Shown: positions 15,300-34,861, counted from the stretch's first letter. The stretch is DNA of 34,861 nucleotides from Endomicrobiia bacterium (GCA_025060535.1 JANXCA010000010.1:1-34861), one strand, 5' to 3'. Notes: generated by a model from the sequence alone, not told the origin. Numbers and translations: made by a program.

Positions 15300-15974
15300 T
15301 TACCTATTAGATAGTTTACTCCAATCTTCCAAAAACTTCTCGATCCCTTTCTGTGTTAATGGGTGATTTATAAGTTCATCTATAAGCTTATAAGGTACAG
15401 TAACCGCATCTGCTCCATATATCGCAGAATTTATTATATGTTCTATATTTCTTACAGATGCTACAATTATTTTGGTTTTAAAATTATATACCTTGTATAC
15501 TTTTACAATATTATATATAAGTTCAATTCCTTTCTCACCTATATCATCTAATCTACCAACAAAAGGACAAATATATTCTACGCCGGATATTGCTGCTATT
15601 AGAGCTTGCTTTAAAGAAAATATAAGAGTTAGTGCTGTCTTTATATTTCTTTCTTTAAGTATCTTTACTGCTTTTAATCCTTCCTGAGTTAAAGGAATTT
15701 TAGCTACTATTTGAGATGAAATTTCTGATAATTCAATACTTTCTTCCACTATATTCTCACATTCTTGGCTAATTGGTTCTGCTAAGACAGGTACTTCTGA
15801 AATACTACATATTTCTTTTAAAATTTTTTTCGTTTCCTTAAATAAGTCTTCTGATTTTGTATTAGTTAACTGTTTTGCTATTATTGTAGGATTAGTTGTA
15901 ACTCCATTTAACAGACCCATTTCATTAACTTTTTTTATCTCTTCTATATTTGCTGTATCTAAAAATAATTTCAT
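15300..15974 (-). CDS. Transaldolase / fructose-6-phosphate aldolase family protein
   Basis: MKLFLDTANIEEIKKVNEMGLLNGVTTNPTIIAKQ, VAKIPLTQEGLKAVKILKERNIKTALTLIFSLKQALIAAISGVEYICPFVGRLDD. Confidence 0.93.
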   Translation of the reverse strand: MKLFLDTANIEEIKKVNEMGLLNGVTTNPTIIAKQLTNTKSEDLFKETKKILKEICSISEVPVLAEPISQECENIVEESIELSEISSQIVAKIPLTQEGLKAVKILKERNIKTALTLIFSLKQALIAAISGVEYICPFVGRLDDIGEKGIELIYNIVKVYKVYNFKTKIIVASVRNIEHIINSAIYGADAVTVPYKLIDELINHPLTQKGIEKFLEDWSKLSNR

Positions 15975-16003: not shown

Positions 16004-19000
16004 CTAAAACCTTATAACCACTTGAGCATTAATACCAAAATTGTAATTTGTTTCTGTTTTTACTACTCTATTTATGTTTATATCAGAACCTAACCCTAAT
16101 GTGACGTTTATATAATCAGATATATTATAATCTCCTCTTATAGAAATACCTAAATTATCCGTATTATTTCTTGCAATATCTATAGGACTTTTTTTATGAA
16201 CATAATTAAATGTAGAATTTATTCTTAATCTATTTTTCAACGGTAACCTTTTACCAAATAACACAATACCATCCTGTTGTGGTACCAAGTCAGCATAATA
16301 AGAAACACCAAAACTATTAGTGGTTATATCTTTAGTAGGCAAACCCCTTGCATCTTTAGAATACTCTTTTCTATATTCATATCTTGGTGTTAATCTCTGT
16401 CCAAAAAATGGTAAACCTACTTGTAAAGTGACGATATCTGTAAAAGAATCTAATACTTTTAGTTTTAACAAAAAATTATAATTAGTAGTAGAGATATTTT
16501 CATAACTTGACAAAATATTATAGTTTTCCATAAAAATAAAACTTATCATTTCCTTATGTCTTATATTCCGTTCTAAGCTTACTTTCTTAATTTCAGTAGT
16601 TCTATGTGTGTATACTAAATCTAACTTAGTATCTTTTAGTACTTTCTTCTTTTTCAAGAAAACTTCCAATAAAGTTTCAAAGCCGTAAAATGTCCAACTT
16701 AAATCTGGCCATACTTTCGTATATGTTAAAGTTTTTGTTTGAGTTTCTTCTCTCTCCTCTAAAGCATCTGAATAAGATAAATTCATATCTGTTTTAGTTA
16801 AAAATGAAAAAGGTCCTTTAAAATTAAAACCTTCAAACAATTTCCAAGTAGTATTTACCCTTTGTTCTTTTCTTTCTAACATCCTGGTTCTTGAAAGTGA
16901 ATATGTTGAGATTTCAAATTTATACCATAATAGATTTAAATTATTGAAACTATATATGTTAAGTGTAGATATATCCTTTGAAAGCTTCTCATATTTATCC
17001 GATGCGATGACAGAGAAATTATAATTTAATCTTAAGGTATTAAAATGTCTCAATTTTATTAAATCCTTAGGTGAAAATCCTACATTAAAATTACTGTTTG
17101 CATTTCTCGTAATGTCTTTTTTGTTTGAAATTGGGAAATTATAATCTTCAATTACATCTATTTTATAACTAAAAAATGGTTTAAAAAAAGGGACTATATC
17201 AATATTAGAATCAAAAGAAAAATTATTTTCATTCCTTTTTTCATAGGAACTAATAATTATAGAATAAGGGGTATAATACATCTGATATGTGTTTTGTAAA
17301 TTATACAAAGTAAAAAAAGTAAGATTACCGTAATACTCAACTGGATTAACATTATTTTGAAGTATAGGCAATTTAATATCCTTATTAACATCATAATTAA
17401 ATCTTCTTAACTCGGAAAAAGTATTTTTATTACTTAAATTTAAATTAAATCTTAATTTGTCCCAAAAATTAAACGGTAAACCTAAATTAGAAAATTTTGT
17501 ATTATCTAAAATTGGAATGGATGTAGAATAATTTAACTCCCAAGGATACAACAGAAATTTTTCTTCTCCATAAGTAAAAGATATATTTTCAATAGGTAAA
17601 TATTTGCTAAAAGGATTTCTATAATTAAAAGTTGCTCTTAAGCTGTCTTTTATATCAGTTCTAGATAAAGCTGTAGTAGATGTGACAGACTTTGAATAAT
17701 TAATATTTAAAGATGGTAGTTTAGATAATATAACTCCTATATTAAAGTTACCTTCTGTAGAAGTACGTTTTCCTTCTTCATATTTTGAAATTAACTCACC
17801 CGCTTTTAAAGCAGAAGGAGTAACAGTTTGGTTTTGTCTTGCTTGAAAATTTATAGGTAAAAATTTCAACTTTGTAAAGTTAAAAAAACTTGAAATAGAA
17901 GTGTTGTCTTGATTAGTAATTGCTGAAGTAAATGTTTCAAATCTCCTGTCAATTGTTCTATATGTAGCACCAAAGTTTATCCAATTCGGAACACTAAAAT
18001 TAAAATCCAATTTTTTAGCTATTCCTTTTTTTGACCAACTTTTTGAAAGGTATATATCATTTATATAAATTATCCCACTCTGTGGTGTGTTCAGTGGATT
18101 TTCTAAAATTATTTCCAACCTTGTTATTGCTTGGAGATTTGGAGTCCCTATTTTTTTACAGATACCTCCAGTAGGATTATTTTCAGAAACACTCCATTCA
18201 TCAGGTATGTTATCTCTATTAATATCAACCTGTTCAATAGTAAATCTAATCCAGTCAGACAAAGAAGATATTGTGGTAGTTGAGTATTCTAAGTAGTTAT
18301 TTATATCAGTATACAATCTAATTTTTAAGATAATATTGTTTGAAGTTTTATTAAATATAAAAAAATTAAAATTGCGATGGAATGTGTAATCTTGTCTCTG
18401 TGAATACAATAAACTTACTACAGATGAGGAACCTAAAGTGTCAAATTTATATTCTATAGCTAAAGATTGTTCTATTTTTGTTTGTTGATATAAACTACCA
18501 TATATAGAAGAGTATTCCTCAAGTTCAGTAAGTTTTTTATATGAACGATCATTTTCATTATTTACTGCAAATATCTTAGTATTTTGTGGAGTTAAAATTT
18601 CAAATTTATTACCAACTATTGAGATTTTTGCAATCTTTAAAACTCCTGATTTATTATATCCTCTTATTCTTAACCTTAAGTTTTTAACATCACTCCATAA
18701 AGTTTTGTTTGTTATTTCTACAGGAACTATAGTTGATGTCCAGCCTGTAAAATTTAAATCTGATATTTTAAAGCTACCTGCAATTTTGTCTGTGGTATTT
18801 AAAACTCCATCAGTATCAAAGTCTTCTGTATCTAATCTTCCATTTTTGGCACCAATAAAAAATTTTTCATTATTTTTTTCATACTCAAAACCAATATCCT
18901 CATCAATATCTAATCTTCCATTTAAATTTTTATCTTCTGTATCTAACTTACCATCATTATCAATGTCTTCAGATGTATGTCCCAAATCTAAGTAAAACTC

Positions 19001-21205
19001 TCCACCTCCAGCGTTGCTGTAGTATTCAATCTCTATATACATTTTTTTTGAAAAATCCAAACCTGTTTTTGAAAAATTATATATTAAAGCCACTTCTGAA
19101 GAACTATATAGCTGATAATTTATCTTTAAAACCTGTTGTTTTTCTAAAGTTGTTTCTCTATTGGGATTTATTTCTTTGACTGGTACCTCCTCATTTTCCC
19201 AAGAAAGTTCACCTCCTATAATTTTATCTAATTTTTCATCATATATGCCAGGAATATATACATAGCTACAGCTTCCATAATTCCACATATGTCTATATGT
19301 TGATACACTATCTTCTAAGGTTATACCTTCCATATTTTCAACTACTGCTTTATCCCATATATTTGGATTTTTTTCATTTTCAGCGTATTCACCAGATATA
19401 GAATTGATAACAAAAGGAATCAACGGTAGTTTCACATCAACAAATCTTGCATCTACCTCCCATACTTGTAATGAACTTGGAGTGTTTCTTAAATCAGGAA
19501 CACTTGTACCTTTAGAAGGCAAGTTCCCAATCCAACTGCTCCCTACAAAAATTTTTTTATGAAGTGGTATTTCTATTCTACCACCAGCAAGTGTTTCTCC
19601 TCCTTGAAGTCCTAACATGCTATATTCATAACTTGCTTCTATGACACTGTTTTCTGTAATCATTTCCTCTTTTAGAAATGTTATAAATCCAGAATCATAA
19701 TCAATCCAATAATCAATGTTCCTTTGAAGAATCTTTCCATCAATTACTATTCTTTCAGAGTATGGTACAATAAATGGTTTTAAAAAATATGTTTTAATTC
19801 TATATCTATATTCTATAAGTATATCATATCTACTTATAGGATTTTTTTCATAACAGTCATCTGCAAACGGCTTATCAGAAACAAAATAAAACTCCCCATT
19901 TTCAAAATCAACAATTATATCTCCTATATTACCAGTTTTATATACTGGAATCGGTTTATCTCCTGGTTGGATTCTATCCACTGAGGGGTCTAATATTCTT
20001 GAGCTTTTGTCCGTAATTTTTAATAAAAAATTTCCTGTACCATCATCTCTTACTATATTAGTTCTTCCTATTGAATATCTGTTTAGTAGCTCCGTAGTAA
20101 AAATTTCATCTTTATCCTTGATTAAGATATAATTTGTGGTTCCTAAAAGTTCTCTTAAAGAAAGATTTGTATTTTCGTCTATGTAATCCACAGCAATTAT
20201 CCAATTTTGCTGAATTGTTCTATTAGGTAAAGTAAAAGTTACAATACCCTTTGCATAATCAACAACAAAATCCCTCCCTAATGCTAACTGCTCAAATTTA
20301 CCTGTATAAGTATAAGTCGAAACGCCAAAAGCTACAGCGGTAAGTTCCACTAAAGTAGCAGGATCTCTTTGAGGGTCTAAAGTATCTAAAAATATTTTTA
20401 CAGAATCTTTTTTTATTTTATGATTATTAAAGGATATTCTATAAAATTTCCTTCTTATATATGAAGTATCGAATAAAATTCTTCTTTCAAACTCTAATTT
20501 GCCAGTAAACCTTTTTGTTTCAAAATTTCCCTTTGATTGTGATGCAATTAAATATAATTTTGCATTTTTATACTGACCTGTAGCTTTTATTCCAAAAACC
20601 TGTCTTGAATATCCTACAAATTCCGTATTTGGAATACTTAACTGAATATCACCAAAAGCAACTTCTTGAATAAAAGCTCCTGGTTTTGCCTTGTATCCAA
20701 CAGCACCAGGTCCTACATCAACTCCTTCACCCCTATAAATTATAGAAATGTCTCTTTTATCAGGTTGTGTGTCATCAATGTCAATATTAACGTCAACATT
20801 TTTTCCAACTTTACCTTTTACACTTACTTGTAACTCTTGCTTCATATTTATATCTGTTCTGTTATATTCAGGTCTATAAGGATAATAAAGATTTTTTATC
20901 TCCATACCAATAAGTTTACGACCTGCAATAGAAAGTTGAGTTCCTTCCATAAATTCTATTGTAGTAGGAGCAACAACCGGTGGCCTTGCCGGAAGTGTTG
21001 ATTTTTCTTCTTCATAAAGAGGCACACCGCTCTCTATACTTTCCCTAACATTATTCCATTTTTTTTGGTCAAATTTGAAAATAGAGTTATAGGTAGTTGT
21101 CGAAGTGCTTATGTTTGTATTTATGTTTATATTTTCAGATTGTGCAAATACTAAACAAGTAGTAAACAATAGAAATAAATATAACGAAATTATTTTGTTT
21201 GTCAT
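16004..21205 (-). CDS. SprA-like giant outer-membrane/cell-surface protein (T9SS translocon-related family)
   Basis: 1733 aa with signal peptide; SprA-type segments GTQLSIAGRKLIGMEIKNLYYPYRPEYNRTDINMKQELQVSVKGKVGKNVDVNIDIDDTQPDKRDISIIYRGEGVDVGPGAVGYKAKPGAFIQEVAFGDIQLSIPNTEFVGYSRQVFGIKATGQY; strand-rich C-terminus ending in F. Confidence 0.75.
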   Translation of the reverse strand: MTNKIISLYLFLLFTTCLVFAQSENININTNISTSTTTYNSIFKFDQKKWNNVRESIESGVPLYEEEKSTLPARPPVVAPTTIEFMEGTQLSIAGRKLIGMEIKNLYYPYRPEYNRTDINMKQELQVSVKGKVGKNVDVNIDIDDTQPDKRDISIIYRGEGVDVGPGAVGYKAKPGAFIQEVAFGDIQLSIPNTEFVGYSRQVFGIKATGQYKNAKLYLIASQSKGNFETKRFTGKLEFERRILFDTSYIRRKFYRISFNNHKIKKDSVKIFLDTLDPQRDPATLVELTAVAFGVSTYTYTGKFEQLALGRDFVVDYAKGIVTFTLPNRTIQQNWIIAVDYIDENTNLSLRELLGTTNYILIKDKDEIFTTELLNRYSIGRTNIVRDDGTGNFLLKITDKSSRILDPSVDRIQPGDKPIPVYKTGNIGDIIVDFENGEFYFVSDKPFADDCYEKNPISRYDILIEYRYRIKTYFLKPFIVPYSERIVIDGKILQRNIDYWIDYDSGFITFLKEEMITENSVIEASYEYSMLGLQGGETLAGGRIEIPLHKKIFVGSSWIGNLPSKGTSVPDLRNTPSSLQVWEVDARFVDVKLPLIPFVINSISGEYAENEKNPNIWDKAVVENMEGITLEDSVSTYRHMWNYGSCSYVYIPGIYDEKLDKIIGGELSWENEEVPVKEINPNRETTLEKQQVLKINYQLYSSSEVALIYNFSKTGLDFSKKMYIEIEYYSNAGGGEFYLDLGHTSEDIDNDGKLDTEDKNLNGRLDIDEDIGFEYEKNNEKFFIGAKNGRLDTEDFDTDGVLNTTDKIAGSFKISDLNFTGWTSTIVPVEITNKTLWSDVKNLRLRIRGYNKSGVLKIAKISIVGNKFEILTPQNTKIFAVNNENDRSYKKLTELEEYSSIYGSLYQQTKIEQSLAIEYKFDTLGSSSVVSLLYSQRQDYTFHRNFNFFIFNKTSNNIILKIRLYTDINNYLEYSTTTISSLSDWIRFTIEQVDINRDNIPDEWSVSENNPTGGICKKIGTPNLQAITRLEIILENPLNTPQSGIIYINDIYLSKSWSKKGIAKKLDFNFSVPNWINFGATYRTIDRRFETFTSAITNQDNTSISSFFNFTKLKFLPINFQARQNQTVTPSALKAGELISKYEEGKRTSTEGNFNIGVILSKLPSLNINYSKSVTSTTALSRTDIKDSLRATFNYRNPFSKYLPIENISFTYGEEKFLLYPWELNYSTSIPILDNTKFSNLGLPFNFWDKLRFNLNLSNKNTFSELRRFNYDVNKDIKLPILQNNVNPVEYYGNLTFFTLYNLQNTYQMYYTPYSIIISSYEKRNENNFSFDSNIDIVPFFKPFFSYKIDVIEDYNFPISNKKDITRNANSNFNVGFSPKDLIKLRHFNTLRLNYNFSVIASDKYEKLSKDISTLNIYSFNNLNLLWYKFEISTYSLSRTRMLERKEQRVNTTWKLFEGFNFKGPFSFLTKTDMNLSYSDALEEREETQTKTLTYTKVWPDLSWTFYGFETLLEVFLKKKKVLKDTKLDLVYTHRTTEIKKVSLERNIRHKEMISFIFMENYNILSSYENISTTNYNFLLKLKVLDSFTDIVTLQVGLPFFGQRLTPRYEYRKEYSKDARGLPTKDITTNSFGVSYYADLVPQQDGIVLFGKRLPLKNRLRINSTFNYVHKKSPIDIARNNTDNLGISIRGDYNISDYINVTLGLGSDININRVVKTETNYNFGINAQVVIRF

Positions 21206-21221
21206 AATATAGAATAAAAAT

Positions 21222-21250
21222 TTGAATAATTATACAATTTTTTATATAAT
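21222..21250 (+). promoter_or_regulatory. Possible sigma70-like promoter for the lptF-type gene
   Basis: TTGAAT (21222-21227), 17 nt, TATAAT (21245-21250), in the divergent intergenic region. The region is nearly pure A/T, so chance matches are likely. Confidence 0.35.
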
Positions 21251-21286
21251 TTTTGTATATTTTTAAATAATTTTATTATGTAAAAA

Positions 21287-22426
21287 ATGAAAATAGTAAA
21301 TAAATATATAGTTTCAAATTTCGTTTCTACTTTTTATACTTACTTATTTATAACTGCTTTTTTAATTTTTATAAATTATATCTATCAAATTCTTAATTCT
21401 TTACTGCTTCATAGACCAAACTCTCACATAATACTCAACTTACTTCTTCATTTACTTCCTTCAGTATTATCCTTAACAATTCCTATAACATTTTTGTTGT
21501 CTGTAATTATGTGTTTGTCTATTCTAAATGAAAATAAAGAAATTTTAACACTACATACTATGGGTTTAAGCAAGATCTATTATACCAAATATCTATTATT
21601 AATTTCATCAATTATAGCAGTATTACTTGTATACTTTAACGGCTATATAGTTCCTAGAAGTTATAAAAATTTTAAATTTATATATTTTAAACAGATAGTT
21701 TCTAAACCATTTATTAGTTTCCAAAATAATGGTGTTATAAACTTGCAGAATAAAAAGATTTATACTCAAAAAGTAGAAAAAGATAGTATTTTTGGAGTTT
21801 ATATTCATAATTTTATAGATGATACCTCAATCCAAACAATATATGCGAAGAAAGCAAATATTTATGCAGATATAAACGGCAACTTAATACTTTACTTATT
21901 TGACGGAAAAATAACTATGTTTAATCCTCAACTTCCAAACGAAATTTTAAATTTAGTTTTCAAACAGTATAAATTTTTTGTTTATAAATCAGAAATAAAT
22001 AAATTTATTCCTTATAATAAAACATTTAGAGAAATGGACAATAGAGAACTTCTTGAAGAATTTAACAATTCCCAATTACCAAAATATAAAAAATTAGTTT
22101 TGTCAGAATATTTTCTAAGATATACTTTGTCCTTTAGTGTATTGTTTTTTTCAATTATTGGAATATATTTAGGCACTAAAATTAAAAAAAGTGCAAGGTC
22201 TGTTAGTTTTGTTGTTTCAATACTAGTTATTTTAATATATTACTTCCTATTATCCACAAGTATAACCATAATAGAAAGAATAGAAGAACTTCCTCTCTCA
22301 TTTATATCAGTTGGAACAGTTATGCAAATCCCTAATTTTACAATGATACTATTATGTGTTTTTATTTCTATAAGTCAGAAAATATATGAAAATATTAAGA
22401 AAATATATACTGGTAGAATTTTTTAA
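21287..22426 (+). CDS. LptF/LptG-family (YjgP/YjgQ) permease
   Basis: N-terminal KYIVSNFVSTFYTYLFI, LTIPITFLLSVIMCLSILNENKEILTLHTMGLS, central soluble domain, C-terminal TM segments. Confidence 0.88.
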   Translation: MKIVNKYIVSNFVSTFYTYLFITAFLIFINYIYQILNSLLLHRPNSHIILNLLLHLLPSVLSLTIPITFLLSVIMCLSILNENKEILTLHTMGLSKIYYTKYLLLISSIIAVLLVYFNGYIVPRSYKNFKFIYFKQIVSKPFISFQNNGVINLQNKKIYTQKVEKDSIFGVYIHNFIDDTSIQTIYAKKANIYADINGNLILYLFDGKITMFNPQLPNEILNLVFKQYKFFVYKSEINKFIPYNKTFREMDNRELLEEFNNSQLPKYKKLVLSEYFLRYTLSFSVLFFSIIGIYLGTKIKKSARSVSFVVSILVILIYYFLLSTSITIIERIEELPLSFISVGTVMQIPNFTMILLCVFISISQKIYENIKKIYTGRIF

Positions 22427-23465
22427 ATTACTTATACCTGTAAGCCTTTTTTTAATTTTAATCTTTGCTTTATCTGAATTTTTTTGGAGATTGCCTGATT
22501 TTATTTCACATAAAACACCTTATTATTATATTATTTATTACCTATCACTTCATGTACCACTGTGGTTTGTTCAAACCTTACCTATAGCAGTTATGTTAAC
22601 AACTTTACTTCTTATTACACACTTACAATATACAAGAGAACTTATTTCAATCAAAACCTTAGGAATAAACACAAGAAGTTTTTTTTCTATATTACTTATA
22701 TTAGGTATCATATTCAGTGCAATTTCTTTTTATGTATATGACAATTTAGCAACAAAGCTATTTAATAAAGCTCAACTGTTTTTTAATATAAAGATAAAGG
22801 AAATACCACAATTTTCCTCTTTATTAAAAAACTTATTTTATTATGACAATAAAAATAATGCTTTTATTTATATAGGAGAATACGATCCACATAATAAAAA
22901 AATAAAAAACTGGTTTGTAGAAAAATTTAATGATGGATTTTTGGAATTAAATATAATTTCTCCTTATGGGATTAAAAAAGATAACATAGTAGAACTAAAA
23001 GATTGTATAATTTATAAATATAAAAAAAATAAATTTTTATCACAGACAAAAATTTCCACTTATGAGTATGCTTTACCAATAGATATTGAAAATTTTCAAT
23101 ACGATTATCATACTATGCAATTAGATCAAAAAAACATACAAGAAATTAAAAAAATAATTGAGTTTATGAAGTATAAAGGTGATACCCCTGCGAGATTTCT
23201 TACAGAAATTTATTTCAGGTATGCTATAACTTTCTTAAATTTTATTGTAATACTTTTTGCTATTCCTTTAGCACAGATAAAAGCTACAAAATATGGAAGT
23301 CTTGTCAGTTTCATATATACCATAACAACTTTAATAGTTTATTGGATAGTTCTATCAATTTTTAGAGTTGTGTGTGAAATTGGAATTTTATCTCATTTTT
23401 ATATTTGGGTACCTAATTTTTTATTTATTATTATAGGAACTTTATTATACTTAAAAGTTAAGTAA
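22386..23465 (+). CDS. LptF/LptG-family (YjgP/YjgQ) permease, second member
   Basis: MKILRKYILVEFFKLLIPVSLFLILIF, QTLPIAVMLTTLLLITHLQYTRELISIKTLGI; same architecture as the preceding gene; overlaps it by 41 nt. Confidence 0.88.
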   Translation: MKILRKYILVEFFKLLIPVSLFLILIFALSEFFWRLPDFISHKTPYYYIIYYLSLHVPLWFVQTLPIAVMLTTLLLITHLQYTRELISIKTLGINTRSFFSILLILGIIFSAISFYVYDNLATKLFNKAQLFFNIKIKEIPQFSSLLKNLFYYDNKNNAFIYIGEYDPHNKKIKNWFVEKFNDGFLELNIISPYGIKKDNIVELKDCIIYKYKKNKFLSQTKISTYEYALPIDIENFQYDYHTMQLDQKNIQEIKKIIEFMKYKGDTPARFLTEIYFRYAITFLNFIVILFAIPLAQIKATKYGSLVSFIYTITTLIVYWIVLSIFRVVCEIGILSHFYIWVPNFLFIIIGTLLYLKVK

Positions 23466-23476
23466 CTTAAATACTT

Positions 23477-24364
23477 TTAATATAACAAGCCAATTTGAAT
23501 AGCATGAGTTGACTGTAGATATTTATGATTACTAAAGGAATAAGATATCAAAAAATTATAAAATTCTAATTCTACTCCACTACCTATACTATAATTATTA
23601 TGAATGTCAAACACATATCCTAAATTTAAATTTAATTTCTTCCTAAAATCTTTTGAAGTATAAATGTTTATAATGTATGACAGTTTATACTTAGAATTTC
23701 TTTTAATAAACATATCCTCATAACCAAAAATTAACATACTTTCTGAGATTTTAAAACCTAAACCAAAATTATAAACAAAATCTTTACTTGTACTTATACT
23801 CTTTATTATACTACCTATTTTTATTGCTTTAAAAATTTTATTTTTAAATTTCAAGTCATAAATCAAACCGTTACTAAATCCGAAATAAATAACTTCTATA
23901 TTTATTTTTTCTAAAAATATATAACCACTAAATCCTAACTGCAAAGTATTACCTTCATCATCTAACAACTTAGCCGCAACTCCTAAGGAGGTTATGCCAT
24001 ATAAATACTCAAAAGTCTCATTTGTTAAAACTCCATCTATGTCTCTAAAGTTTATTTCACCAGATGTAAACCTTCCAAATACCAAGCCTATACCAATTTT
24101 GTTATCCACAATAGTAGAAATACTTAAAAGATCATAAGTAGTCATTCCGTAATAAAATATCTTGGTATATTCTGAATTATATTGTGATTTTAAGTTAACT
24201 AACAAAGAAGGATTAGTTATTACGCTAAATCCATTATTTTCTACAATAGATAATTCACTTGCTATCGTTTTACAAGTAGGAATACTTATTATTGCAACGT
24301 TATTAGAAAAAATTTGAAAAAATAATATGAATAAACTAATAATAACAAAAAACAATTTATCCAT
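23477..24364 (-). CDS. PorV/PorQ-like outer-membrane beta-barrel protein
   Basis: Signal peptide; ENNGFSVITNPSLLVNL resembles the (A)NPAGLA region of PorV-type barrels; strand pattern throughout; sits next to a CTD-bearing protease. Confidence 0.55.
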   Translation of the reverse strand: MDKLFFVIISLFILFFQIFSNNVAIISIPTCKTIASELSIVENNGFSVITNPSLLVNLKSQYNSEYTKIFYYGMTTYDLLSISTIVDNKIGIGLVFGRFTSGEINFRDIDGVLTNETFEYLYGITSLGVAAKLLDDEGNTLQLGFSGYIFLEKINIEVIYFGFSNGLIYDLKFKNKIFKAIKIGSIIKSISTSKDFVYNFGLGFKISESMLIFGYEDMFIKRNSKYKLSYIINIYTSKDFRKKLNLNLGYVFDIHNNYSIGSGVELEFYNFLISYSFSNHKYLQSTHAIQIGLLY

Positions 24365-24367
24365 TGT

Positions 24368-26188
24368 CTATTTTTTAATTACAAACTTATCTATAACAGT
24401 ATTGTATTTTGATTTAAAACATACAAAATAAAGCCCAGCAGACAATTGACCATTTTCTTCTTTTAAATCCCACAACTCTTCATAATATCCTGCTACAGAA
24501 TGATATCTTTCTATCATTTTTACTAAATTGCCAACTAAATCAAAAACCAATATTTTAATATCTGTGGGCTCATCAATGTGATATCTAAAAGAAATTTTTG
24601 GTAGCTTGTTATAATCTAAATAATTGTTACCAATTATAAATTCATTCTTTTTTACAACTAAAGCAGGATTATATCTTAACACAATATCTTTTATTGTTAA
24701 TTTATCCTCTTCAACTATAAAGGTATCTTTATAATCTAAGTAATTAACTAATTCACATCTTAAATTCCAACTTCCAGTTGAAAGTTCTATCATACAGTGA
24801 CCTTTTATAGAAAAACTATATGTAGATTGAGAATTATTATATACATATACCTTTACATTATCTAAATATCTCCCATCTAATGTCATAATTTTTGCTAATA
24901 TACCTGATATTGACACAATATTAAAATTTACAAAATTATTCAATAAAGTTATTTCTGTAATATTAGTATTTATCGGTTGACCATTATAGGCAGTAACATT
25001 ATATTGTTGAGGAACAAAGTTAACAACATTTTTAGTACCTGGAAAAGGGTCTCCGGCGTCATTCTTATCTTTACCAAGCAAACTCTTATCAGCTGCAATT
25101 AAATCAACAGCCAAATGTGGAACCCCAGAGTTTATGTCATTGTTTTTTAATCTAATTGGAGAAGTCGCTATTTCATCATCTATTTTCCATATCAAAAGCC
25201 CACTACCAGGTAAACCTTCATCAAATCCTATTTGTGTTCTATATTCTAACAAAAAATATTCACTTTCTGGATTATCAGATGTTAAAATCTTTATTTTAAC
25301 AGCAGACGATGAACTCTCAACATTTTCTAAGAATATGTTCCTTACCGTGGAGCTTATTACTATTGGTTCTAACCAACCCAAAAAGTACTTACACCATGCT
25401 GATAAGTGAGAAGGTTTTGAACCTTGAGGAGAGCCTAGCCATACACCATTATCCATTAAACACCAACATCCCACTATACTTTCTTGCTCATAGTATAAAT
25501 CAGGAAGTCCTAACTGATGTGCAAACTCATGACAGACTACTCCTAAGGGTGAAGCTCCATATTCTTTTTCAGGTACTATTGTACCATCTGTAAAACCATT
25601 TACTGGAACTTCCCAATCAATATATACAGACCATATATCTTGTGGATTATTAGTAGATTCATTTCCATATCCTGCATGAAACACCATTACATAATCATAA
25701 AGGGTTGCGTTTACTGCAGTCCCTGTAATTGAAATAGCATCTTTAACTAATTGAGCTAATCTTGACTCTGTATCTTCTCCATAATATCCCATATTTCTGG
25801 ACAAAGTATATGGGAGCTCTTCACCTGTTAAAGTATTAGATGTTCCACCGTCATAAAAAAAAGTATAATCAAGTTTCAATTTACCATAAGATACTTCTTC
25901 ATAATAGTTCACAAATTGAGAAAAAATTTGTTGTGCTTGTTCATGCCAACCAAATGAAAATTTTTTATCTGGAAAATCTACAATTATCACTGCAATTTTT
26001 TTAATACCAGTAGTGTTTAACAAATCTGCTCTTTTAACTTTAGGAGCAAATTTCAAATCGGATGAATAATTAATCTTTACTTTACTTTTAGGAAAATTTC
26101 TTATTTTTTTATCATATAAATGAATAACTGTAGAATTTAATCTAACAGTAAATAAAAAAAATAAAAAAAATAAAATTAATTTTCTCAT
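24368..26188 (-). CDS. M6-family (immune inhibitor A-like) metalloprotease with C-terminal FlgD-like/T9SS type A-like domain
   Basis: Signal peptide; HEFAHQLGLPDLYYE (HExxHxxGxxD); C-terminal IKILVFDLVGNLVKMIERYHSVAGYYEELWDLKEENGQLSAGLYFVCFKSKYNTVIDKFVIKK. Confidence 0.88.
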   Translation of the reverse strand: MRKLILFFLFFLFTVRLNSTVIHLYDKKIRNFPKSKVKINYSSDLKFAPKVKRADLLNTTGIKKIAVIIVDFPDKKFSFGWHEQAQQIFSQFVNYYEEVSYGKLKLDYTFFYDGGTSNTLTGEELPYTLSRNMGYYGEDTESRLAQLVKDAISITGTAVNATLYDYVMVFHAGYGNESTNNPQDIWSVYIDWEVPVNGFTDGTIVPEKEYGASPLGVVCHEFAHQLGLPDLYYEQESIVGCWCLMDNGVWLGSPQGSKPSHLSAWCKYFLGWLEPIVISSTVRNIFLENVESSSSAVKIKILTSDNPESEYFLLEYRTQIGFDEGLPGSGLLIWKIDDEIATSPIRLKNNDINSGVPHLAVDLIAADKSLLGKDKNDAGDPFPGTKNVVNFVPQQYNVTAYNGQPINTNITEITLLNNFVNFNIVSISGILAKIMTLDGRYLDNVKVYVYNNSQSTYSFSIKGHCMIELSTGSWNLRCELVNYLDYKDTFIVEEDKLTIKDIVLRYNPALVVKKNEFIIGNNYLDYNKLPKISFRYHIDEPTDIKILVFDLVGNLVKMIERYHSVAGYYEELWDLKEENGQLSAGLYFVCFKSKYNTVIDKFVIKK

Positions 26189-30493: not shown

Positions 30494-32941
30494 CTATATT
30501 TTTAAAATTGGTTTGTATAGCCACAACCAAATTTTTGAAAATAAATTTTTTTTGTGGTTAGTTTTATTATTATCTTCCTTATGATTTATTTCAATAATTT
30601 TTGTATTTTCATATTTTATATTATTGTTTTTTATTTCATTTGCTAAAACAAGTGTTTCTAAACGTGTTTTTAATTTAGCTATTTCCTCATCCTTTTTGTT
30701 AAGTGTTTCTTCTAAAATTTTATATTCGTTTAAAAGTTTATTATAAATATCTTTCCATGTAGTGTCTATCTTATCTATTGTTTCTTCATGCCGCTTTACT
30801 ATCTCTGACACTTTCGCAGAAAATTCGTGCTCTATTTGTACTTTATATCTTTTGTATTCTTCTATTTCAGAATTTAGTTTTGATATAATCTCATTTTTTT
30901 CCTTATCTTGTTGTATTAACTCTTCTATTTGCTGTTTAAGTTGATTTTTTTCTTTTTCATATTCTTCTTTTTGCACACTTACAAAATCCTTCAATTGTTT
31001 TTCTAACTCTTTTATTTGTTTTTCTAAAGATTCTTTTTCTTTTTTATTAGAATCTAACAAAGTATGTAATTTTTCTATTTCTTTTTGTTTTTTAAATAAT
31101 TCATTTTTAAATTCTTCTATTGCTATAGTGGAGTCTTCTTTTAATTTTTTATTTTCTTCTTCCATGAGTTTTATTTTTTCTGTTGTTTGGCTATATTTTT
31201 CTATTATTTGATTATACTCATTTTTAAGTTTTTCATATGAATTATTTAACTCTTGTAAAATCCTTAACTTATCATTTAATTCCGATTTAAGTTTTTCATT
31301 TTCTCTTATTAATGTTTCATTATTTATAGATAATTGAGATATTTTATTTTCATAATTTTGTTTTAAGTCATCAATTCTTCTCATTTCATTTTCATGTTTA
31401 TTAATTAATTCATCGTATTTATGCTTTGTTTCCTGGTATTTAGCAATATATTCATTTATAATCTTCTCTTTTTCTTGAATCTCTGCAAATAAATACTTGT
31501 TTGTATCTTCTATTTGAGAGATATATTTTTTATACTCTTCTACCTTAGAATTTACATTTTTTTCAACTTCTTCTTGAAAGTTTTGTTTATATTTTGCAAA
31601 TTCTAAACTTAAATCCTGATACATATTTATATACTTATTTAACTCATTCGTTAATTTTTCTATTTCAGCATTTTTTAATGAAGATAGTTCATTCAGATGA
31701 GCAGTAATAGTATTATATTCTTGAGTTAAAGTTTTCAATTGTTGCTCTAATGAATTATTTTTATATAAAACATCCCTAATTTCATTATTTTTTTGATTTA
31801 TTTCTTCTTGGAGTTTTTTAACTTCTTGTTCTAATTCACTCTTATTTTGCAATTCTTTTTGTAACTTTTCAAGATGGTTTTTGAGTTCTTTGATTTCATT
31901 ATCTTTTTGTTGAAGTATTTTGTCAATTTCTATTTTATGACGAGCTTGAAGTATTCCTATCTGTGTTTTTAACAAAAAGAAATCTTTCTCTTTTTGTTCT
32001 CTTTCCTGTCTGATAACTCGTAGCTCCGCCTTTAGATTTTCAATTATATGTTGTAACTTACTAATCTGTTCATCTCTTTTTTTAATCTCAAAATTAAGTT
32101 TATCTTTTGAAACACTGGATTCTGATTGTAATGTTGCAATATTAGATTTTAAAGTTATTATTTCTCTTTCTTTTTCTTCAATTTTATCTCTTAAATGTTT
32201 TATTTCATTTTCAAAATTTTTATATTGGAATTTGTAATCTGAAATTTGTCTCTCAAAATCAGCTTTAAGTTTTTCTTCTAAAATTTTATATTCATTTTTT
32301 ACTTTGTTTATTTCTTCTTCTTTATTTCTAAGAATTAACTGAAATTTTGTTTTTTCTTCTTGCCAGCGGGATTCTAAATCTCGTATACGAGTAAGAAATT
32401 GCTGTTCTATTTGTTGCTCTTGTAAATCTCTCTGAGACATTTGGGTTTTTAATGTTTCAATCCAAGTTTCTCTTTCTTTAGCAAGTCGTTCTTCTAATTC
32501 CTTAATTTGTTTTATTAATTTTTCTTTTTCTTCTTTAAGTTCTTGTTCTCTTTTTTCTCTTCTCAATCTTTCTTGTATATCTCTTATACTTTCCTCCACC
32601 TTCATTGCAAGCGCTTCTTCTTCTTTTGTTTTTATTGTTTGCATCATAAGCTTCTCACGTTCTTCAAGTAACATTCTCTGTAATTCCTGAAGCTGAATTT
32701 CCATCTGCCTTTTTGCTTGTTCAGCTTCCCACAACCTCTGTTCTATTGGTGAAGAAAACTGTGGGGTAGGAATTGTTTTGTCAGAAACATTTTTCGTAAC
32801 ATTAGGAAAATTAGAAATAGATATTTGTGGTGTATTTTTATTAGATGGTAAATTAGGTACTTTACCTACTCCAGGAGACGTTGGTGTCTTAGTAGATGGT
32901 ATAGGTGGTTTTGGAATTTGTGGTTTATTTTTGTCTTCCAT
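30494..32941 (-). CDS. Long coiled-coil protein with Pro-rich N-terminus and basic/aromatic C-terminal tail
   Basis: 815 aa; N-term KPQIPKPPIPSTKTPTSPGVGKVPNLP; about 650 aa of Glu/Lys/Leu heptad-like sequence; C-term KKNLFSKIWLWLYKPILKI. Confidence 0.85.
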   Translation of the reverse strand: MEDKNKPQIPKPPIPSTKTPTSPGVGKVPNLPSNKNTPQISISNFPNVTKNVSDKTIPTPQFSSPIEQRLWEAEQAKRQMEIQLQELQRMLLEEREKLMMQTIKTKEEEALAMKVEESIRDIQERLRREKREQELKEEKEKLIKQIKELEERLAKERETWIETLKTQMSQRDLQEQQIEQQFLTRIRDLESRWQEEKTKFQLILRNKEEEINKVKNEYKILEEKLKADFERQISDYKFQYKNFENEIKHLRDKIEEKEREIITLKSNIATLQSESSVSKDKLNFEIKKRDEQISKLQHIIENLKAELRVIRQEREQKEKDFFLLKTQIGILQARHKIEIDKILQQKDNEIKELKNHLEKLQKELQNKSELEQEVKKLQEEINQKNNEIRDVLYKNNSLEQQLKTLTQEYNTITAHLNELSSLKNAEIEKLTNELNKYINMYQDLSLEFAKYKQNFQEEVEKNVNSKVEEYKKYISQIEDTNKYLFAEIQEKEKIINEYIAKYQETKHKYDELINKHENEMRRIDDLKQNYENKISQLSINNETLIRENEKLKSELNDKLRILQELNNSYEKLKNEYNQIIEKYSQTTEKIKLMEEENKKLKEDSTIAIEEFKNELFKKQKEIEKLHTLLDSNKKEKESLEKQIKELEKQLKDFVSVQKEEYEKEKNQLKQQIEELIQQDKEKNEIISKLNSEIEEYKRYKVQIEHEFSAKVSEIVKRHEETIDKIDTTWKDIYNKLLNEYKILEETLNKKDEEIAKLKTRLETLVLANEIKNNNIKYENTKIIEINHKEDNNKTNHKKNLFSKIWLWLYKPILKI

Positions 32942-32957
32942 ATTCTAAATACCCCCT

Positions 32958-34861
32958 TTATATTTCTGTTTCAATTTCTTTAAGCCAATTTTTAATAATA
33001 TTGTTTTCAGGATTAATCTCTAATACTTTCAAGGCATATTTTTTAGCATTTTGATAATCATTTAAGTTAAAATAACATAAACTAATATACTGATTTATTA
33101 CCTCATTATTTTCATCATAAATTTTTAAAAATTCTCTTAATGCGATTTCATATTGTCGATTATTATACAAATCTATTGCATATGAAATCTGGGATTTATA
33201 ATTATCATAAAAAGTATTTCTATGAGAATTAAGTTTAGAAATCTTTTCCATTACATACTGAGTAATATCTTTTTCTTTTATAACTTCTGCATCTTTTAAT
33301 GCAAAAATTTCACTTTCTAATTTTAATTTTGAATCAATTTTAGCAAGAAGTTCATTTATAATATACTTATATTCATTCAACTTTTGTTTTAACATATTTA
33401 TTTCTTCATTTAATAGTTTTTTTGTGTTCTCTTTTTGAGATAATATCTTATTTCTTTCATTCTCCCATTGTTGGATTAACATATCAAATTCATTCTTCAA
33501 AAGCTCTATATTTTGTTTTCGATTTTGAATATTAATCTTATAATACTCATCTTTATTCTTATAATTCTCTTCAAGTTGTTTTAATTCTTCGAGCAGTTTA
33601 TTAATCTCTTTATCCATAAATTCTTTTCTTTTCTTTCTTTCTTCTACATTTGCTTGCTCTCTTAATGAACATCTTATTTCTAAAGTCTTTAGCTCATTCT
33701 CTTTGTTTTTTATTCTTTCTAAAATTTCCTCGTTTTCTTTATTAAATTCTCTCATTATTTTCTCTTTTTTTTGCTCATATTCCATTGCTAATTTTTTAAG
33801 TTCAAAAGATAATTTATCTTTAGAGGACTTTATTTCTATTTCTTTCAAAGTTATTTTTGTTTTTATGTTGTCTATTTCCTTTTGTAATTCTTTTATCATA
33901 TTTTCATTTTCTATCTCCATATCTTTTATTTTCTTACTCAACTGCTCTATTTCTTTCTGAAGAGTTTCCTTTTTTAATTCATATTCGTTTTCATCTTGAA
34001 TAATTTGTCTTTGTATTTCTTTTTCAAGTTCATTATATTTTTGAGTAATTTTTTGTTCTTCAAAAAATAAATTATTTAACTTTTCTATATATTCTTCTCT
34101 TTGTTTTTCAATTTTAGACCTTAAGTATTCTATTTCATTTTCTAATCTTTCTTTTTGTTGATTTAATTCTTTATTTCTTTTTTCTTCTTCTATTTTAATA
34201 GATAATTCTAATTCAGATAACTTTGACATCAAATTCTTAAGTTCTTCTTCTTTTTTATTTTTTAGTAAATTAAATTCATATTGTTTTGAAGATAATTCTC
34301 CTTCTAAAAAATTAATTTGAGATAATAATTTATTTATTTTTAAATTGTATTCTTCTTTTTTAGTATTATATTCTTCTGTAAGCTGTTGTAATTTTTTATC
34401 ATATTCTTGTTTTAAATTAGATATAGCTTGACTTTTTTCTGCCAATTTTAATTTATATTCGTCTGCCTCAGAATTAATCTTAGACTTCAAATTAGAAATT
34501 TCAAAATTAAGAGATGCTCTCAACTCCTCAAATTCCTGTCGCTTTATATGCCATTCTTGTTCAAATAACTCCTTCTTAGATGAAATTTCTGATTTTATTT
34601 TTAATATTTCATTTTGAAGATTTTCTATATTTTCTTTTAATTCTTTTTCTGTTAGAGAAATTTTCTCTAAAAGTTGCGATTTTTGTATTTCTAATTCTTC
34701 TATTTCTTTTGTTTTCTTTTCTGTTAATTGATTCAATTCATCTATCATTATTTTCTCTTTATTTTTATATTCTAAAAGAATTGTTTCAAATTCTTGCTGT
34801 TTTTGTGAAATTAAATTTTCATAATCTTTTTTTAAAGAATTTAATATATTATTATAATTTT
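32958..34861 (-). CDS. Long coiled-coil protein with C-terminal TPR; 5' end beyond the window
   Basis: The track starts it at 34748, but the frame is open to the right edge and still coiled-coil (...NSLKKDYENLISQKQQEFETILLEYKNKEKI-MIDELNQL...). C-terminus LYNNRQYEIALREFLKIYDENNEVINQYISLCYFNLNDYQNAKKYALKVLEINPEN is TPR. Confidence 0.85.
   Translation of the reverse strand, partial: NYNNILNSLKKDYENLISQKQQEFETILLEYKNKEKIMIDELNQLTEKKTKEIEELEIQKSQLLEKISLTEKELKENIENLQNEILKIKSEISSKKELFEQEWHIKRQEFEELRASLNFEISNLKSKINSEADEYKLKLAEKSQAISNLKQEYDKKLQQLTEEYNTKKEEYNLKINKLLSQINFLEGELSSKQYEFNLLKNKKEEELKNLMSKLSELELSIKIEEEKRNKELNQQKERLENEIEYLRSKIEKQREEYIEKLNNLFFEEQKITQKYNELEKEIQRQIIQDENEYELKKETLQKEIEQLSKKIKDMEIENENMIKELQKEIDNIKTKITLKEIEIKSSKDKLSFELKKLAMEYEQKKEKIMREFNKENEEILERIKNKENELKTLEIRCSLREQANVEERKKRKEFMDKEINKLLEELKQLEENYKNKDEYYKINIQNRKQNIELLKNEFDMLIQQWENERNKILSQKENTKKLLNEEINMLKQKLNEYKYIINELLAKIDSKLKLESEIFALKDAEVIKEKDITQYVMEKISKLNSHRNTFYDNYKSQISYAIDLYNNRQYEIALREFLKIYDENNEVINQYISLCYFNLNDYQNAKKYALKVLEINPENNIIKNWLKEIETEI

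What the first reader, a model, noticed from the sequence alone, without database searches (positions are those of the whole stretch)
16004..26188. Candidate T9SS-like secretion set: SprA-like translocon, PorV-like shuttle and CTD-tagged M6 protease within 10 kb
A SprA-like giant barrel, a PorV/PorQ-like barrel and a signal-peptide metalloprotease with a FlgD/T9SS type A-like C-terminal domain lie close together. In Bacteroidota, SprA (Sov) is the T9SS outer-membrane channel, PorV binds it and shuttles CTD cargo. The SprA-like protein here is 1733 aa, shorter than canonical ~2400-aa SprA. If the organism is outside Bacteroidota, as the AT-rich compact genome and archaeal-type genes may suggest, this could be a divergent or minimal T9SS. 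No PorK/L/M/N or PorU homologue is visible in the window.
Basis: partly seen in the sequence, partly recalled or inferred. Interest (0 to 1): 0.72.

Follow-up and report, generated by a model that had tools for sequence, protein, structure and literature searches.

The report
Type IX-like secretion outside its phyla
A hot-spring relative of gut-symbiont bacteria (Elusimicrobiota) carries the giant pore, shuttle proteins and tail-tagged cargo of the type IX protein-secretion system, which papers describe as confined to Bacteroidota and close kin; the pore gene is nearly universal in this phylum, but the usual sortase and motor genes were not found.

Summary
The 1733-aa protein is a SprA/Sov homologue: a 26-member profile finds Flavobacterium SprA (6h3i) at E=4e-29 in four collinear stretches. 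The 295-aa protein belongs to a PorV/PorQ family (profile vs 6h3i PorV, E=1e-18). The 606-aa protein is an M6 metalloprotease ending in a T9SS type A-like CTD. The host is an Endomicrobia-class Elusimicrobiota, outside the FCB phyla to which papers confine T9SS. SprA is in 169/200 genomes of the phylum, usually single-copy, often in a locus M6-CTD/PorV/LptG-LptF/SprA/ComF. The window's genome holds about 30 C-terminal CTD proteins (including GH5/8/9/16 glycan hydrolases) and 18 PorV-family genes. In the class, PorV genes often lie directly downstream of a CTD cargo (29/50 vs 2/50 on the other side). Genomes lacking SprA mostly lack CTDs. C25 PorU was found in 1/200 genomes. GldM (61 genomes) and GldL (200) gave no credible match, but those profiles may be too insensitive. 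Best reading: a SprA/PorV/CTD (T9SS-type) export system, a new variant, with cargo-dedicated PorV carriers and an M6 protease where PorU would be expected. No experiment exists; structure models failed.

The parts
16004..21205 (-). SprA/Sov-like outer-membrane translocon, 1733 aa, N-terminal signal peptide by eye
   Evidence: TIGR04189 E=7e-21; family profile vs SprA 6h3i E=4e-29, 4 collinear stretches; in 169/200 phylum genomes
19442..19771 (-). best SprA-model stretch of the protein (aa 479-588, TIGR04189 604-713)
20507..20941 (-). N-terminal SprA-model stretch (TIGR04189 97-232), contains the conserved MKQELQV..KGKVG..V.V..D region
21287..22426 (+). LptF/LptG family LPS-export permease, divergent from SprA; conserved neighbour
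   Evidence: PF03739 152 bits; conserved next to SprA
22386..23465 (+). second LptF/LptG family permease
   Evidence: PF03739 189 bits
23477..24364 (-). PorV/PorQ-family outer-membrane barrel, probable carrier, 3 nt downstream of the M6 gene
   Evidence: PorV_fam E=2e-4; family profile vs PorV 6h3i_F E=1e-18; locus orthologues match PorQ 1e-24 and PorV 1e-18
24368..26188 (-). M6-family metalloprotease with C-terminal T9SS type A-like sorting domain, 606 aa
   Evidence: TIGR03296 150 bits, TIGR04183 E=6e-4; conserved at the SprA locus
25499..25531 (-). zinc-protease motif HEFAHQLGLPD (aa 220-230)
   Evidence: translation; both His and the Asp invariant in 14 locus orthologues
24371..24598 (-). 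CTD (aa 531-606) ending ..SAGLYFVCFKSKYNTVIDKFVIKK
15300..15974 (-). transaldolase-like gene downstream of SprA; most relatives have a ComF-family gene here; probably not part of the system
   Evidence: sequence

Best explanation
The window carries the core of a type IX-like (SprA-dependent) secretion system of Elusimicrobiota. Cargo proteins reach the periplasm by Sec (signal peptides) and enter the SprA pore. They bind through their C-terminal domain to a PorV-family barrel docked at the pore, and leave sideways as a carrier-cargo complex (mechanism inferred from the F. johnsoniae structures). Unlike Bacteroidota, which use one PorV for all type A cargo, these genomes carry many PorV paralogues, often one directly downstream of its own large adhesin-like CTD cargo, so a carrier probably stays with its cargo as its surface anchor. 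Cellulases and similar enzymes carry CTDs without a neighbouring PorV and presumably use a shared carrier. In the window the M6 metalloprotease-CTD and its PorV sit beside SprA as a conserved ancestral pair; with no C25 PorU, the M6 protease is the best candidate to process CTDs. Shown: homology, gene order, genome-wide CTD/PorV sets, apparent absence of C25. Inferred: transport function, carrier specificity, M6 role. Unknown: energy source.
For: SprA homology. PorV homology. About 30 CTD proteins in the genome, the 18 strongest all ending within 15 aa of the CTD; several over curated cut-offs of Por_Secre_tail or CHU_C. Unpaired cargo includes GH9, GH8, GH16 and GH5 enzymes; paired cargo has beta-helix/Big_1, propeller, PKD and fn3 domains. 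CTD-PorV gene order 29/50 upstream vs 2/50 downstream, Fisher 3e-9. SprA in 169/200 phylum genomes; in the class CTDs occur in 40/48 genomes with SprA vs 1/13 without. M6 within about 10 kb of SprA in 21 genomes of 12 families (searches compared by eye). Mechanism of the homologous machine: PMC10994853; one PorV for type A and cognate PorP/SprF downstream of type B cargo: PMC12618676.
Against: P0001, P0002 and the P0003 CTD each score below their curated cut-offs on their own. About 54 of the 169 genomes with SprA have no CTD at E<=1e-4, mostly Elusimicrobiaceae. Four genomes have CTDs but no SprA found (G037, G145, G154, G178; all fragmented and/or incomplete). M6 is missing from the SprA locus in families f3, f13, f16 and f21, so it cannot be essential everywhere. 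The C-terminal third of SprA did not align significantly. The co-occurrence test ignores shared ancestry. No usable structure model.
Confidence: 0.86

Rival explanations
1. A conventional T9SS: motor (PorL/M), ring (PorK/N) and a sortase are all present but too diverged for the profiles, so nothing is missing and only sequence divergence is new.
For: P0001 itself scores only 73 bits over a 2319-position model; at that divergence a 250-520 aa motor protein could fall below detection. PorK, PorN and SprE/PorW were not searched.
Against: C25 is compact, its profile did ring in one Elusimicrobiota genome (G064), yet it is unseen in the other 199; GldM gave nothing credible in 61 genomes and GldL only chance-level matches in 200.
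Confidence: 0.4
2. The M6 protease at the SprA locus is simply one more secreted cargo with its PorV carrier, with no role in processing other CTD proteins.
For: It has the same cargo-then-PorV gene order as many adhesin cargos and is absent from the locus in several families that keep SprA.
Against: It is the CTD gene that recurs beside SprA across 12 families, with the zinc-protease motif conserved; M6 at the SprA locus fills the gap left by PorU next to a PorV/PorQ.
Confidence: 0.5
3. SprA here has another main substrate (for example envelope lipids or polysaccharide, given its LptF/LptG neighbours), and CTD proteins use something else.
For: LptF/LptG adjacency is among the most conserved in the locus; many Elusimicrobiaceae keep SprA with no detectable CTD.
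Against: CTD and PorV families co-occur with SprA, and SprA's only known function is CTD-protein export.
Confidence: 0.08
4. The CTD-like domains are ordinary FlgD-type Ig domains and the PorV-like barrels ordinary FadL-family channels, with no secretion system.
For: FlgD_ig and Toluene_X models also match weakly.
Against: The domains are strictly C-terminal, reach T9SS curated cut-offs in several proteins, are genetically paired with PorV, and the PorV profile prefers PorV (5e-37) over TodX (2e-6).
Confidence: 0.04

Closest known systems
T9SS translocon SprA/Sov-PorV of Flavobacterium johnsoniae (PDB 6h3i, 8gl6-8gln)
   Same: Homologous pore and carrier by profile; CTD cargo with type A and CHU_C signatures.
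   Different: Pore about 600 aa shorter; many PorV paralogues; outside the FCB phyla; Plug, PPI, SprE/PorW not examined.
Type B CTD / PorP-SprF cognate shuttle pairs (F. johnsoniae, PMC12618676)
   Same: Cargo gene followed directly by the gene for its own shuttle barrel; paired cargo adhesin-like.
   Different: Here the shuttle is PorV-family and the paired cargo looks type A; the CHU_C-like cargo is the unpaired set.
PorU/PorV/PorQ/PorZ attachment complex of P. gingivalis (PMC5562754)
   Same: A CTD-bearing protease with a PorV/PorQ barrel.
   Different: M6 zinc metalloprotease instead of C25 cysteine sortase; no evidence of processing activity.
NCBIfam T9SSA_dep_M6i (NF052323) and PorV2 (NF052325)
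   Same: P0003 matches the M6i model (91 bits) and P0002 the PorV2 model (19 bits), both far below cut-off.
   Different: M6i is catalytically inactivated by its name; the Elusimicrobiota M6 keeps HExxH.

Membership tests
Type IX secretion system (T9SS) | SprA/Sov translocon | tested here: met
   Profile E=4e-29 to 6h3i, collinear; below the TIGR04189 equivalog cut-off
Type IX secretion system (T9SS) | PorV carrier | tested here: met
Type IX secretion system (T9SS) | Multiple secreted proteins with C-terminal sorting domains | tested here: met
Type IX secretion system (T9SS) | C25-family PorU sortase | tested here: not met
   0/61 class genomes, 1/200 phylum genomes
Type IX secretion system (T9SS) | PorL/PorM (GldL/GldM) proton motor | tested here: inconclusive
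   GldM none credible in 61, GldL only chance-level in 200; no T9SS-positive control genome was available
Type IX secretion system (T9SS) | PorK/PorN ring, SprE/PorW, Plug, PPI | not tested
Type IX secretion system (T9SS) | CTD-dependent export across the outer membrane | not testable with these tools
   Needs experiment
SprA equivalog (TIGR04189) | Whole-protein score above 200 bits | tested here: not met
   P0001 73 bits
PorV/PorQ family (NF033709) | Score above 90 bits | tested here: not met
   P0002 21 bits; class paralogues reach 90-213 bits
M6 metalloprotease domain (TIGR03296) | Score above 110.8 bits and zinc motif HExxHxxGxxD | tested here: met
   149.7 bits; HEFAHQLGLPD
T9SS type A CTD (TIGR04183) | C-terminal domain above 23 bits | tested here: inconclusive
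   P0003 19.8 bits; about 17 other proteins of the genome exceed 23

The most novel reading that the evidence does not exclude
An ancestral, motorless type IX-like system: without PorL/M, each cargo leaves SprA with its own single-use PorV carrier, which becomes its permanent surface anchor (some carriers bear extra C-terminal TPR, CsgG-like or CarboxypepD_reg domains), and an M6 zinc metalloprotease has taken the place of the PorU sortase.
Probability: 0.25. Interest if true: 0.88.

Novelty: new variant of a known kind. Interest (0 to 1): 0.74.

Why it matters
Papers state that T9SS genes are absent outside the FCB phyla (PMC11285876), that SprA is FCB-specific (PMC12611786), and that T9SS is restricted to Bacteroidetes (PMC4793230). 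A nearly phylum-wide SprA in Elusimicrobiota widens the range of the system and raises the question whether it predates the FCB group. It also offers a natural test of what the motor and the sortase are for, since carriers and cargo persist where neither is recognisable, and it suggests how deep-branching environmental Elusimicrobiota place cellulases and adhesins on or outside the cell.

Tried and rejected
AlphaFold2 of P0002 (pLDDT 43) and of SprA aa 81-1230 (pLDDT 26) failed: only two sequences were allowed in the alignment. Foldseek with the poor PorV model gave only generic barrels at E>=0.02. phmmer of P0001 and P0002 alone against the PDB found nothing; profiles were needed. The GldL matches (best E=2e-5) scored far below the cut-off and scattered without pattern over 7 genomes; I read them as chance. 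The strict pattern test for a motif in unpaired CTDs was not significant (p=0.2). Ten paper searches found no account of T9SS in Elusimicrobiota; subscription papers and preprints are not covered.

Full report
What is there. Between SprA and PorV lie two LptF/LptG genes on the other strand, not mentioned in the finding. The contig belongs to a 1.9-Mb draft genome, 88% complete.

Is the giant protein SprA? Alone it scores 73 bits against TIGR04189, E=7e-21, below the curated cut-off of 200. Homologues exist in 48 of 61 relatives. A profile of 26 of them finds SprA of F. johnsoniae at E=4e-29 in four stretches in the same order: profile 143-254, 506-586, 809-1002, 1039-1130 against SprA 151-264, 697-778, 1158-1401, 1474-1566. 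All 26 match TIGR04189 and one matches Pfam SprA_N. The missing ~600 residues are lost from the intervals between stretches and from the C-terminal third, not from one domain. Across the phylum the profile matches 169 of 200 genomes, 136 of 143 good ones, usually one copy of about 1700-1950 aa. Most listed absences are in small or incomplete genomes of Endomicrobiaceae. G082, a single contig of 1,643,562 bp, is probably Elusimicrobium minutum (its length, from memory) and has SprA.

Is the 295-aa protein PorV? Alone it is weak (E=2e-4). With orthologues from other SprA loci its profile finds solved PorV at 1e-18, and a profile of class paralogues at 5e-37, far better than FadL-type TodX. Members also match PorQ.

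Cargo. TIGR04183 finds about 30 candidates in the genome at E<=1; the 18 strongest all end within 15 residues of the protein's C-terminus. Some reach curated cut-offs of Por_Secre_tail or CHU_C. A background caution: at E<=1 the same model also rings in 13 of 14 control genomes, at 1e-4 only in Bacteroides, so weak single hits mean little.

Carrier-cargo pairing. NF033709 finds 18 PorV-family genes in this genome and about 30 in several relatives. In 50 PorV loci sampled from the strongest hits in the class, a CTD gene lies upstream on the same strand in 29 and downstream in 2 (Fisher 3e-9). In the window's genome 9 of the 18 strongest CTD genes have a PorV directly downstream, as does the window's M6 gene. 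Paired cargo proteins tend to be large and adhesin-like; unpaired ones include GH9, GH8, GH16/GH114 and GH5 enzymes and a CBM3 protein. In F. johnsoniae type A cargo shares one PorV and type B cargo has cognate PorP/SprF shuttles encoded downstream (PMC12618676); here the one-to-one logic is run with PorV-family barrels. Some PorVs carry extra C-terminal TPR, CsgG-like or CarboxypepD_reg domains.

The SprA locus. The order M6-CTD, PorV, LptG/LptF (opposite strand), SprA, ComF recurs across the phylum. Comparing coordinates by eye, M6 lies within about 10 kb of SprA in 21 genomes of 12 families. The zinc ligands are invariant in 14 aligned orthologues (the 'None' for L090 is only a Gly-to-Ala change in the search pattern). 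C25, the PorU family, is absent from 61 class genomes and found in one of 200 phylum genomes, which also shows that the search can find it. M6 as PorU substitute is therefore an attractive but untested idea, weakened by families that keep SprA without M6.

Co-occurrence. In the class, 40 of 48 genomes with SprA have a CTD at E<=1e-4, against 1 of 13 without (Fisher 8e-7; relatedness not corrected). In the phylum, 119 of 200 genomes have CTDs; four of these lack a detected SprA (drafts). About 54 SprA genomes, mostly Elusimicrobiaceae, lack detectable CTDs, which I cannot explain: diverged signals or another substrate.

Mechanism. In F. johnsoniae the CTD binds PorV loops inside the SprA pore and motor energy is needed to pull the PorV-cargo complex out (PMC10994853). 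No GldM in 61 genomes and no credible GldL in 200 were found, but given how weakly SprA itself scores, these negatives are not conclusive. A motorless system with single-use carriers is the most novel reading left open.

Known or new. Papers place T9SS in Bacteroidota or the FCB group and state it is absent elsewhere (PMC4793230, PMC11205867, PMC11285876, PMC12611786). Ten searches found none reporting it in Elusimicrobiota. I file it as a new variant of a known kind: the core is homologous, but C25 PorU was tested and not met, and the motor is unresolved.

Noticed in passing
L036, L038, L040, L041, L043, L046, L049 (own genome): Unpaired CTD proteins share by eye an SLNNDxxNExIxF-like start resembling type B/CHU_C signals, and several are cellulases or glucanases; a strict pattern test was not significant.
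   Followed up: partly
L072, L073, L130, L132, L138, L143, L148: In Endomicrobiaceae one conserved PorV-family gene has no CTD neighbour and is followed by a ~190-aa gene resembling dephospho-CoA kinase (coaE); candidate shared carrier.
   Followed up: no
L077:16495-17856: SprA-locus PorV of G003 is fused to a C-terminal CsgG-like domain.
   Followed up: partly
L169:4260-5879, L173:4457-6061, L071:481-2436: PorV-family barrels with C-terminal TPR repeats.
   Followed up: partly
L121, L122 (G064): The only C25 peptidase matches in 200 Elusimicrobiota genomes, two fragments on different contigs; possible PorU or a gingipain-like protease.
   Followed up: no
L085:1607-3127, L120:957-2513, L103:18306-19478: A distinct OmpP1/TraF_2-like barrel gene sits upstream of the M6 gene at several SprA loci.
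   Followed up: no
L084 and L102: A second very long ORF (1771 and 1721 aa) lies directly beside SprA; not identified.
   Followed up: no
window 30494-34748: Two long coiled-coil proteins (815 and 596 aa or more) in tandem at the contig end.
   Followed up: no
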